Assembly: GCF_001050195.2 (NCBI RefSeq)
Contig: NZ_DF967966.1
Coordinates: forward strand, 257,046-298,947
Direction of reading: 5' to 3'
DNA length: 41,902 nt
Source: Anaerolinea thermolimosa
GTDB taxonomy: Bacteria; Chloroflexota; Anaerolineae; Anaerolineales; Anaerolineaceae
Shown: positions 4,515 through 6,733 of the stretch, one piece after another
Numbering within the stretch: position 1 is the first letter of the stretch
Layout of the letters: each line of letters opens with the position of its first letter
The notes under the pieces: generated by a model
Told to the model about the DNA's origin: nothing
Seen by the model: only the letters and a program-made list of their open reading frames with translations
Database searches by the model: none
Program-made: the position numbers and the translations under genes

Positions 4515-6323
4515 TCATAGCTCTGCAGAACGGGTGCGAATGCGGTCGGTAATCAGCGCGATAAACTCTTCTACTGGCATAACCTGCTGACTGCCGTCGC
4601 GTTTGCGCAGGGCTACTGCTCCGGCGTTCATTTCTTTCTCACCGACCACCAGCATGTAGGGCACCTTCATCAATTGTGCTTTGCGGATTTTCGCGTTCAT
4701 CCGGTCGGGCGTCAGGTCGGCTTCCACGCGCACGCCCAGGTCGTAAAGGCGGTTCTGCAGGTTGACCGCATACTCATTCTGGCTGTCGGTGATGGGAATG
4801 ATGCGCACCTGTTCTGGTGAGAGCCACACCGGGAAGGCCCCCGCGTAATGCTCCAGCAGGAACCCGATAAGGCGTTCATGGGTGCTGAGAGGTGCGCGGT
4901 GCAGGCACAGAGGGGTTTCGGGCTGGCCGGCTTCGTTGGTAAAGGTTAATTCAAAGCGCGCCGGTTGGGCAAAATCTACCTGGTTGGTGGCCAGGGTAAA
5001 CTCTCGCCCGATGGCACTGCGCACCTGCACGTCGATCTTGGGGCCATAAAAGGCGGCTTCGTCGGCGATTTCAATATACGGGATGCCGTTCTTTTGCATG
5101 GCCTGGCGCACCATATCCTCGGTTTTCTTCCAGAGTTCGGGGTTGTTCACGTACTTCTTCCCCAGCCCCCTGGGATGATGCGTGCTGAAGCGCATGTAGT
5201 ATTCCTGAATACCGAACAGTTCGAAGTACTCCAGGTACATCTTGATCACATCTGTGAATTCCTGCTCGAATTGCGCTTCTGAGCAATAAATATGAGCGTC
5301 ATTCATCTGCAGTGAACGCACCCGCATCAGGCCGAACAGCTCGCCGCTTTTCTCGTAGCGGTAGCAGGTGCCATACTCGGCCAGGCGCAGAGGCAGGTCG
5401 CGGTAGCTCCGCGGGCGGCTGGCAAAAATCTTGTGGTGCATGGGGCAGTTCATGGGCTTGACGTAATAACGCACCCCTTCCAGCTCCATGGGCGGGTACA
5501 TGCTCTCGGCGTAATACGGCAAATGCCCCGAGTGCACAAAGAGGTCTTCTTTGGCCAGATGAGGGGTGCGCACCCGGACGTAGCGGTGCTTGAATTCCAC
5601 TTCCTTGGCCAGTTTTTCAATTTCTTCGATGATCGCCCCGCCGCGCGGAGTCCACAGAGCCAGCCCCGGGCCAACTTCCTCGTCGAAGGTGAAGATATCC
5701 AGTTCGCGGCCCAGCTTCCGATGATCGCGTTTTTTGGCCTCTTCAAGGCGCCAGAGGTATTCTTCCAGCTCTTTCGGGTCATTCCAGGCCGTGCCATAGA
5801 TGCGCTGGAGCATGGGGTTGTGTTCATCGCCGCGCCAGTACGCCCCCGAGACGTGGAGCAATTTAATGGCCTTCGGGTTAATCTCGGCTGTGTTCTCCAC
5901 ATGCGGCCCGCGGCACAGGTCCACGAAGGAATCGTGCTGGTAAATGGAGATTTCGGGCTTCTCTTCCACGGGGTTGCCGTCTTCATCTACTTCACCGCGC
6001 TCCAGCCCTTCAATCAGTTCCAGTTTATAGGGCTGATCCTTGAAGATTTGCCGGGCTTCCTCCGCGGAAACGACCCTGCGCACAAAGGGATGCTTTCCTT
6101 TGATAATTTCCACCATGCGCTTTTGAATTTGCTCCAGATCTTCCGGAGTCAGTGTGCGCGGGAGGTCGAAATCATAATAAAAGCCATCTTCAATCGCCGG
6201 GCCGATGGCGATTTTGGCGCCGGGGAACAGTTCCATCACCGCCTGCGCCATGACATGGGCAGTCGAGTGGCGGATGCGATAGAGTTTGGAATCCTCATAA
6301 CGTTCACGCATTTTTGCTACCAT
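4515..6323 (-). CDS. thrS: Threonyl-tRNA synthetase lacking the TGS domain
   Basis: It charges tRNA-Thr with threonine in the cytosol. I start at the ATG at 6323, which follows AAGGAGG by 7 nt. The longer reading frame upstream is the T-box leader, not protein. The 602-aa product begins almost directly at the editing domain (RHSTAH, His19/His23; later CRGPHV), then the class II catalytic core (motif 2 region YRYEKSGE, zinc-ligand region KPMNCPMHH, motif 3 region LCLHRAPLSTHERLIG) and the anticodon-binding domain (VRIIPITD to RKRDGSQQ). The N-terminal TGS (ubiquitin-like) domain of about 60 residues found in E. coli ThrS is absent, and the upstream sequence does not encode one. Expression should be controlled by the T-box. 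Confidence 0.95.
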   Translation of the reverse strand: MVAKMRERYEDSKLYRIRHSTAHVMAQAVMELFPGAKIAIGPAIEDGFYYDFDLPRTLTPEDLEQIQKRMVEIIKGKHPFVRRVVSAEEARQIFKDQPYKLELIEGLERGEVDEDGNPVEEKPEISIYQHDSFVDLCRGPHVENTAEINPKAIKLLHVSGAYWRGDEHNPMLQRIYGTAWNDPKELEEYLWRLEEAKKRDHRKLGRELDIFTFDEEVGPGLALWTPRGGAIIEEIEKLAKEVEFKHRYVRVRTPHLAKEDLFVHSGHLPYYAESMYPPMELEGVRYYVKPMNCPMHHKIFASRPRSYRDLPLRLAEYGTCYRYEKSGELFGLMRVRSLQMNDAHIYCSEAQFEQEFTDVIKMYLEYFELFGIQEYYMRFSTHHPRGLGKKYVNNPELWKKTEDMVRQAMQKNGIPYIEIADEAAFYGPKIDVQVRSAIGREFTLATNQVDFAQPARFELTFTNEAGQPETPLCLHRAPLSTHERLIGFLLEHYAGAFPVWLSPEQVRIIPITDSQNEYAVNLQNRLYDLGVRVEADLTPDRMNAKIRKAQLMKVPYMLVVGEKEMNAGAVALRKRDGSQQVMPVEEFIALITDRIRTRSAEL

Positions 6324-6348
6324 TTCAGCACCTCCTTGCTGACCAGAA

Positions 6349-6600
6349 TAAAAAAACTCCGCTGCCCGGGCTGGTTCACAGACCAGCTTTCTGGGGCGAG
6401 CGAAGTTCGCACGTGGTTCCACCCAGGTTCGCGCCCGCAGGCGCGCACTCATCAGGCCGGTAACGGGGCCAATCGTCTTGCCTTACTTCTGGGCCGGTTC
6501 GGGCAAGCCGCTCGCGGGTGGTTTTCATCGGCGTCCTTCCCGGAGGGGGTTCTCAGTCTACGACCCCGCTCTCTCTGTCGGTGTCCGCCGGTTACTCGTC
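6349..6600 (-). promoter_or_regulatory. T-box riboswitch leader of thrS (threonine)
   Basis: The minus-strand leader has a recognisable T-box. The antiterminator carries the hallmark GGGTGGAACCACG near 6424-6412, with acceptor-binding bulge TGGA (6421-6418). A stem I-like region at 6600-6540 includes GACGAGTAA and ACAGAGAG, and GAGAACCCC offers Thr codon ACC as specifier (6550-6548). A competing terminator, AACTTCGCT...AGCGGAGTT with an inner CTGGT/ACCAG hairpin, ends in TTTTTTT (6356-6350). Uncharged tRNA-Thr should stabilise the antiterminator and switch thrS on. The bulge base A would pair with a U73 discriminator, usual for tRNA-Thr in many bacteria. The specifier position is less certain than the antiterminator. 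Confidence 0.88.
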
Positions 6601-6619
6601 CCGGTCGTCGCGTTTCCAG

Positions 6620-6693
6620 TGGGCGGTATAGGGCTCGAACCTACGACCTCACGGATGTCAACCGTGTGCTCTAACCAGCTGAGCTAACCGCCC
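6620..6693 (-). tRNA. tRNA-Val (GAC anticodon)
   Basis: The minus strand folds into a full cloverleaf: acceptor GGGCGGT/ACCGCCC, D arm AGCTC...GAGC, anticodon stem CACGG/CCGTG enclosing loop TTGACAT (anticodon GAC), a variable loop, and a T arm with GGTTCGAGCC. The discriminator base is A. CCA is not encoded. It is the first gene on the transcript that continues into the thrS T-box leader. Confidence 0.95.
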
Positions 6694-6704
6694 GCGTGAG
6701 CCTT

Positions 6705-6733
6705 ATTATAGCCAGATTAGGCGGGTTTTGCAA
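6705..6733 (-). promoter_or_regulatory. Promoter of tRNA-Val (and probably thrS)
   Basis: On the minus strand, -35 TTGCAA (6733-6728), a 17-bp spacer and -10 TATAAT (6710-6705), placing the start about 5-10 nt before the tRNA. I see no second promoter between the tRNA and the T-box, so thrS probably depends on this one. Confidence 0.7.

What the first reader, a model, noticed from the sequence alone, without database searches (positions are those of the whole stretch)
6349..6733. A threonine T-box leader lies directly behind a tRNA-Val gene on one transcript
Seen: a consensus promoter before tRNA-Val, no promoter between the tRNA and the T-box, and about 20 nt between the tRNA 3' end and the start of the T-box fold. 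Inference: RNase P/Z processing of a tRNA-thrS primary transcript creates the 5' end of the T-box mRNA. That would join tRNA-Val supply to ThrS synthesis and put an uncapped, processed 5' end at a tRNA-sensing RNA.
Basis: partly seen in the sequence, partly recalled or inferred. Interest (0 to 1): 0.6.

Follow-up and report, generated by a model that had tools for sequence, protein, structure and literature searches.

The report
tRNA gene heads riboswitch-controlled synthetase operon
In this bacterium a valine tRNA gene and the threonine-sensing switch of a threonyl-tRNA synthetase gene are very probably made as one RNA, so that the switch has no promoter of its own and its stop signal probably also ends the tRNA transcript; relatives in which the two lie apart mostly have the missing promoter and stop signal.

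Summary
tRNA-Val(GAC) (6693-6620, minus strand) is followed by a full-length Thr T-box leader (6617-6389, 85.4 bits, under Rfam's cut-off of 93) and thrS. Only 8 bases separate tRNA and stem I, not about 20. The best promoter-like site before the T-box scores 4/12; ahead of the tRNA, 10/12. Relatives give a natural test. Of 100 loci of the order, 50 have both elements, 27 with gaps of 0-18 nt, in 10 families. A promoter stands just before the T-box in 0 of these 27, but in 41 of 49 loci whose T-box has no tRNA or a distant one. Of 10 distant tRNAs, 7 have their own terminator. Specifier ACC and T-box base A (each 90 of 91) fit tRNA-Thr(GGU), not tRNA-Val. The tRNA-Val(GAC)-thrS order also occurs in two other phyla; no T-box was found in five such genomes. 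leuS shows a second case: tRNA-Ala ahead of its T-box in 22 of 23 loci. Best reading: one transcript from the tRNA promoter, the T-box terminator also ending the tRNA RNA, and tRNA 3' processing making the leader's 5' end. Processing is inferred; there are no RNA data; regulatory coupling is unproven.

The parts
6705..6733 (-). sigma70-type promoter TTGCAA-17-TATAAT of the tRNA/T-box/thrS unit; predicted start near 6698, about 5 nt before the tRNA (inference)
   Evidence: 10/12; a site of at least 9/12 within 80 nt before the tRNA in 25 of 27 short-gap relatives
6620..6693 (-). tRNA-Val(GAC), CCA not encoded, discriminator A6620; the only tRNA-Val(GAC) among the 51 tRNA genes found in the genome
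6612..6619 (-). spacer between the tRNA 3' end and stem I of the T-box; predicted 5' tail after tRNA 3' processing
6389..6617 (-). T-box leader (RF00230), model 1-219
   Evidence: (85.4 bits, E 3.6e-19; gathering score 93)
6520..6522 (-). specifier ACC (Thr), which fits tRNA-Thr(GGU)
   Evidence: alignment; 90 of 91 leaders ACC; tRNA-Thr(GGT) gene present
6412..6424 (-). T-box core GGGUGGAACCACG; bulge UGGA at 6421-6418, variable base A6418
6391..6426 (-). antiterminator (alternative to the terminator): 10 Watson-Crick pairs
   Evidence: Rfam structure; structure scored at -9.5 kcal/mol
6350..6408 (-). intrinsic terminator of the leader with run of 7 T; predicted also to end the tRNA-Val transcript
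   Evidence: fold -28.3 kcal/mol; sequence
6331..6337 (-). ribosome binding site AAGGAGG
   Evidence: sequence
4515..6323 (-). thrS, threonyl-tRNA synthetase (602 aa)
   Evidence: PF00587, PF03129, PF07973; TIGR00418, 650.6 bits
3722..4267 (-). infC, translation initiation factor IF-3, next gene downstream; a promoter-like site (9/12) lies at 4400-4372

Best explanation
The window holds a tRNA-headed T-box operon. One promoter starts RNA about 5 nt before tRNA-Val(GAC). RNA polymerase makes the tRNA, then after 8 spacer bases the Thr T-box leader. If tRNA-Thr(GGU) is charged, the leader terminator forms and ends the RNA, so it also acts as the terminator of the tRNA-Val gene. If tRNA-Thr(GGU) is uncharged, the antiterminator forms and thrS is transcribed. 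The tRNA is cut out on its 5' side by RNase P and on its 3' side by RNase Z or a similar nuclease. The T-box RNA therefore starts with a processed 5' end on a short single-stranded tail. Supported by comparison: shared promoter and shared terminator. Supported by sequence: Thr specificity. Inferred: the processing steps and the antitermination itself. tRNA-Val is not the ligand. The pairing probably arose because the Thr T-box sits inside an old tRNA-Val(GAC)-thrS gene pair.
For: Window: promoter 10/12 before the tRNA, best 4/12 in the 90 nt before the T-box. Order: 50 of 100 loci have both elements, 27 with gaps 0-18 nt in 10 families. A site of 9/12 or better within 80 nt ahead of the tRNA in 25 of 27 (shuffled 4.4%); 0 of 27 within tRNA plus gap (shuffled 2.6%, so this zero alone says little). 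Promoter in the 90 nt before the T-box: 0 of 27 short, 1 of 13 middle, 32 of 39 T-box only, 9 of 10 far; short against the last two p = 8e-14, not corrected for kinship. Within-family contrasts agree in f1, f5, f12 and f14. Own terminator after tRNA-Val: 7 of 10 far, 1 of 13 middle, and that one locus (L155) also has a T-box promoter. Specifier ACC in 90 of 91; variable base A in 90 of 91, fitting U73 of tRNA-Thr(GGU) and not A73 of tRNA-Val. RNase Z-type and RNase J-type homologues present. Other families of the phylum: 6 of 8 scanned loci have gaps of 19 nt or less. Second example, leuS: promoter 10-11/12 ahead of the first tRNA-Ala in 22 of 22.
Against: No RNA data exist here; promoters and terminators are consensus matches, and the terminator scan and the leuS promoter scan had no shuffled control. 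The T-box scores below Rfam's gathering score. In 40 of 100 loci the T-box has no tRNA within the fetched stretch, 8 have the tRNA without a detected T-box and 2 have neither, so the arrangement is dispensable. In 2 of 27 short-gap loci no promoter of 9/12 was found before the tRNA, and in a third (L212) the site lies far off, 50 nt upstream. In 8 of 49 separated loci none was found before the T-box. Family f2 gives no contrast: its two T-box-only loci score 0 of 2. Three of ten distant tRNAs lack a detected terminator. A T-run was seen behind 83 of 91 leaders, not all. Some short-gap relatives encode CCA, so RNase Z may not be the enzyme everywhere.
Confidence: 0.82

Rival explanations
1. The T-box and thrS have their own promoter inside the tRNA gene or the gap, and the nearness to tRNA-Val is only packing.
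For: The anticodon arm contains TTGACA, a perfect -35 hexamer (sequence). Most separated T-boxes have a promoter of their own (41 of 49), so the bacteria can supply one.
Against: No hexamer pair scores above 4/12 in the 90 nt before the T-box. 0 of 27 short-gap loci reach 9/12 inside tRNA plus gap.
Confidence: 0.05
2. Co-transcription is real but only historical: the tRNA-Val(GAC)-thrS gene pair is old, and the processed 5' end has no effect on the switch. (This accepts the transcript of the best explanation and denies a regulatory role for the junction.)
For: The pair occurs in two further phyla (23 of 30 loci; 12 of 30), and no T-box was found in 5 of 5 such genomes searched. In the order the T-box is often found without a near tRNA (40 of 100 with none in the stretch, 10 with one over 200 nt away).
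Against: The short gap is found in 10 of 15 families, and the predicted tail after processing (median gap 10 nt) is close to the 5' tail expected of separated T-boxes (-10 element ends a median 15 nt before the T-box). Both facts can also be read as chance under this rival.
Confidence: 0.6
3. tRNA-Val on the same RNA is itself a ligand of, or competitor for, the T-box, coupling valine tRNA to thrS.
For: It is a tRNA placed next to a tRNA-binding RNA.
Against: Specifier ACC cannot pair with anticodon GAC. The T-box base A does not fit discriminator A73 of tRNA-Val, while both fit tRNA-Thr(GGU). The leuS case carries tRNA-Ala, also non-cognate.
Confidence: 0.03

Closest known systems
T-box riboswitch of thrS in Bacillus subtilis and other Firmicutes
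   Same: Thr specifier, T-box core, terminator/antiterminator, thrS as target. thrS is among the synthetase genes under a T-box in at least 29 of 34 Firmicutes (PMC2494555, passages).
   Different: There the leader starts at its own promoter (recalled). Here the first cistron of the transcript is a non-cognate tRNA, and the leader's 5' end is predicted to come from tRNA 3' processing. The B. subtilis thrS leader is also processed, but just upstream of its terminator; in vitro a second site was seen only on 5'-monophosphate RNA and is ascribed to a block of 5' exonuclease (PMC3997798, passages).
T-box genes reported in Chloroflexi
   Same: Same phylum, judged from the names of the nearest thrS loci; T-boxes on an ile-tRNA ligase gene, trpE and trpB in Dehalococcoides (PMC2494555, passages).
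   Different: thrS and leuS leaders behind tRNA genes are not mentioned in the passages seen.
Mixed tRNA-mRNA transcripts of bacteria (E. coli secG-leuU, tRNA-tufB; recalled)
   Same: A tRNA and a protein gene share a transcript and processing separates them.
   Different: Here a riboswitch sits between them, and its terminator would serve as the tRNA gene's terminator.

Membership tests
T-box leader (RF00230) | Match to the covariance model | tested here: inconclusive
   Full length 1-219, 85.4 bits, E 3.6e-19, but below the gathering score of 93
T-box leader (RF00230) | Specifier codon that fits the regulated gene | tested here: met
   ACC at 6522-6520; 90 of 91 leaders ACC
T-box leader (RF00230) | T-box core with a variable base that fits the discriminator of the ligand tRNA | tested here: met
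   UGGA; A in 90 of 91, U73 in tRNA-Thr(GGT); the pairing rule is recalled
T-box leader (RF00230) | Mutually exclusive terminator and antiterminator | tested here: met
   Prediction only: terminator 6408-6350 at -28.3 and antiterminator 6426-6391 at -9.5 kcal/mol share bases 6408-6391. A free fold of 6442-6390 chose another pairing.
T-box leader (RF00230) | Antitermination by uncharged tRNA-Thr | not testable with these tools
   needs a transcription assay
Mixed tRNA-mRNA transcription unit | One promoter, no promoter or terminator between tRNA and mRNA leader | tested here: met
   by consensus and comparison
Mixed tRNA-mRNA transcription unit | Observed dicistronic RNA and processing | not testable with these tools
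   no RNA data

The most novel reading that the evidence does not exclude
tRNA maturation sets the working state of the riboswitch: the T-box folds and reads tRNA-Thr correctly, or survives long enough to matter, only after tRNA 3' cleavage gives it a 5' monophosphate tail. tRNA-processing capacity would then be a second input to thrS (and leuS) control, and riboswitch termination would be the normal way these tRNA genes end.
Probability: 0.12. Interest if true: 0.8.

Novelty: new variant of a known kind. Interest (0 to 1): 0.57.

Why it matters
It gives a conserved case in which a tRNA gene and a tRNA-sensing riboswitch appear to share one promoter and one terminator, so that stable RNA and a regulated mRNA come from the same initiation. 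Related genomes carry both the joined and the split form. That makes a clean comparison for asking how the 5' end of a T-box RNA (triphosphate or processed) affects its function and decay, and how a tRNA gene lives with a conditional terminator.

Tried and rejected
Rfam at its default threshold did not list the T-box; the E-value search found it. A single-sequence fold of the leader is no better than shuffles (z -0.15), so folding energy was not used as evidence that the element is real. The ninth T-box hit in the genome (L009, E 1.67) is taken as chance. That other T-boxes are also tRNA-headed was tested. In the window's genome only thrS and leuS (2 of 8) have a same-strand tRNA within 1.5 kb upstream; the stretch before pheS (L004) is partly masked. 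Of the 29 best-scoring further T-box loci, two have one and both are thrS (L332; L342, over 1.2 kb away). A third thrS locus (L314) and the other 26 have none in the held flank; the regulated gene was not identified for all 26. A promoter hidden in the tRNA was looked for and not found. tRNA-Val as ligand was rejected on specifier and discriminator.

Most listed papers were not opened. The library lacks most subscription papers, and the comparative study by Vitreschak et al. was not held.

Rows dropped: of 103 genomes with thrS, one is the window's own and the last two in the list (G096, G120; thrS matches at contig ends) were not fetched, leaving 100. Five of the 100 have under 500 nt upstream because a contig ends there (L120, L144, L157, L177, L183), so absence of a tRNA there means little. 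Of the 8 'tRNA only' loci, two (L195, L211) carry a T-box core motif, so the model may have missed T-boxes. In one search one T-box-only locus with under 60 nt upstream was left out (39 of 40); one search had 38. In the leuS set 23 of 25 loci were read, the window's genome included; two low-scoring paralogues (L366, L367) were left out. T-box starts there are estimated from the core, and in several loci the estimate falls inside the T-box. One search miscounted because its motif failed in many loci; one search repeats it correctly. One of 31 genomes is missing from each (no locus returned; no match). These two samples start from genomes chosen because they had the gene pair. One search asked for 13 named loci; one search scanned five of those with eight others.

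Full report
What is there. On the minus strand, a promoter (TTGCAA-17-TATAAT, 6733-6705) ends 11 nt before tRNA-Val(GAC) (6693-6620). Rfam's T-box model matches 6617-6389 over its whole length (85.4 bits, E 3.6e-19), below the gathering score of 93. The specifier is ACC, the core is GGGUGGAACCACG, and a terminator with seven T follows. The antiterminator of the Rfam structure can form ten Watson-Crick pairs and shares bases 6408-6391 with the terminator. Then come a ribosome binding site, thrS (6323-4515) and infC (4267-3722).

Specificity. The genome has 51 tRNA genes, with one tRNA-Val(GAC) and one tRNA-Thr(GGT). In 91 aligned thrS leaders (the window and 90 relatives) the specifier is ACC in 90; the exception (L163) lies in a run of C and looks like an alignment shift. 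The variable T-box base is A in 90 of 91, which fits U73 of tRNA-Thr(GGU) and not A73 of tRNA-Val. So the tRNA on the transcript is not the tRNA that is sensed. A T-run was seen behind 83 of the 91 leaders.

Conservation. A DNA search first showed tRNA plus T-box in relatives. thrS was then found in 103 of 121 genomes of the order, and 100 upstream stretches were fetched. ARAGORN and Rfam give: 58 of 100 with a same-strand tRNA, each including tRNA-Val(GAC); 90 of 100 with a T-box at E up to 0.01; 50 with both, 40 T-box only, 8 tRNA only, 2 neither. Of the 50 gaps, 27 are 0-18 nt (10 of 15 families), 13 are 31-91 nt and 10 exceed 200 nt. Outside the order, 60 loci chosen at one to three per family had 13 same-strand tRNA-Val(GAC), and three more had it on the opposite strand. 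Eight of the 13, those with a T-box core, were scanned with Rfam: 6 have gaps of 19 nt or less, one 106 nt, and one has no T-box match (L248).

The natural test. If T-box and thrS use the tRNA promoter, joined loci should lack a T-box promoter and split loci should have one. Sigma70-type sites of at least 9/12 occur in the 80 nt ahead of the tRNA in 25 of 27 short-gap loci (shuffled 4.4%) and 12 of 13 middle loci, and inside tRNA plus gap in 0 of 27 (shuffled 2.6%). In the 80 nt before the T-box they occur in 31 of 38 T-box-only loci (shuffled 6.4%) and 9 of 10 far loci (shuffled 11%). In the 90 nt before the T-box they occur in 0 of 27 short, 1 of 13 middle, 32 of 39 T-box-only and 9 of 10 far loci. 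Short against T-box-only plus far gives p = 8e-14 without correction for kinship. The contrast is seen within families f1, f5, f12 and f14; f2 shows none. The reciprocal also holds. A terminator directly follows the tRNA in 7 of 10 far loci and 1 of 13 middle loci, and that one (L155) is also the one with a perfect TTGACA-16-TATAAT before its T-box. None was found in the 8 tRNA-only loci, where thrS may be read from the tRNA promoter without a switch. A short gap has no room for one. In one relative (L027) tRNA-Val, with no thrS seen in the held 3.1 kb, is followed by its own terminator. The T-box terminator therefore most likely ends the tRNA transcript in joined loci.

The 5' end. In joined loci (short and middle) the -10 element ends a median 12 nt before the tRNA (n = 37), so RNA starts about 5 nt before it. 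In split loci it ends a median 15 nt before the T-box (n = 41), a 5' tail of roughly 8 nt; the median short gap is 10 nt. tRNA 3' cleavage would thus give the leader about the same tail as its own promoter does elsewhere. RNase Z (288.5 bits, cut-off 292.95) and TIGR00649 (597.3 bits; the RNase J label is recalled) homologues are encoded. The window's tRNA has no encoded CCA, but some relatives do, so the enzyme may differ. In the B. subtilis thrS leader a site seen in vitro only on 5'-monophosphate RNA is ascribed to blocked 5' exonuclease (PMC3997798, passages), so a processed end could matter; this is inference.

A second case. In the window's genome the leuS T-box (L007) follows tRNA-Ala(CGC) and tRNA-Ala(GGC). 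Of 23 leuS loci read in the order, 22 have at least one of these tRNAs upstream on the same strand and 19 have both. A strong promoter (10-11/12) precedes the first tRNA in 22 of 22. A site of 9/12 or more lies in the estimated gap before the T-box in 2 of 22, and one of 10/12 between the two tRNAs in 2 of 19; there was no shuffled control. The other six T-boxes of the genome have no upstream tRNA on their strand in the held flank, part of which is masked for one. Among the 29 best-scoring T-box loci of relatives, only two, both thrS, had one.

Age. The tRNA-Val(GAC)-thrS order also occurs in 23 of 30 loci from the phylum of a genome whose record is named Marinimicrobia and 12 of 30 from the phylum of one named Elusimicrobia, one of these over 1.3 kb away. 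In five genomes with the pair no T-box was found (0 of 5). The gene pair is thus independent of the T-box and may be older. Of the 80 best named thrS loci (of 586 found), 22 have a same-strand tRNA-Val upstream (21 GAC, 1 TAC; up to 2.6 kb away), 17 of them in records named as Chloroflexota or its groups.

Literature. Wels et al. list ile-tRNA ligase, trpE and trpB-like T-boxes in Chloroflexi (PMC2494555, passages). TBDB shows context downstream of the T-box (PMC7778990, abstract and passages), and PMC3766115 names Chloroflexi among the phyla with T-boxes (passages). No listing of ten searches showed a paper on tRNA genes directly before T-boxes.

Verdict. The finding is real and broader than stated. 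Co-transcription is well supported by comparison, processing is a sound inference, and regulatory coupling of tRNA-Val to ThrS is not shown.

Noticed in passing
L007 1501-2023; G000:C1:1834590-1835112: The leuS T-box lies behind two tRNA-Ala genes; 22 of 23 leuS loci read in the order keep at least one of these tRNAs upstream.
   Followed up: yes
L349, L350, L354, L364 (between tRNA-Ala(GGC) and leuS T-box): A hairpin with arms like ACTCAGGG...CCCTGAGT recurs between the last tRNA-Ala and the leuS T-box in several genera; its role is unknown.
   Followed up: no
L027 1570-1760: In one relative the last 23 bases of tRNA-Val and its terminator are repeated in tandem, three copies 81 nt apart, with no thrS seen in the held stretch.
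   Followed up: partly
L402, L407, L409, L411: In a second phylum tRNA-Val(GAC) is the last gene of a cluster such as Leu(GAG)-Gly(GCC)-Cys(GCA)-Val(GAC) before thrS.
   Followed up: partly
L240, L268, L277: In three loci of the phylum outside the order tRNA-Val(GAC) is next to thrS but on the opposite strand.
   Followed up: no
L207, L209, L213, L216, L219: In one family (f15) five loci keep tRNA-Val close to thrS but no T-box or T-box core is detected.
   Followed up: no
window 3722-3642: infC is followed by a terminator-like hairpin at 3660-3642, and no ORF of 30 aa or more between 3000 and 3722 on its strand reads like L35 or L20 to the eye, although these genes often follow infC (recalled).
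   Followed up: partly
G000:C1:2524936-2526761: A tRNA-Ser(TGA)-tRNA-Ser(GCT) pair is present twice, about 1.6 kb apart, with the same 3' ends and flanking bases.
   Followed up: no
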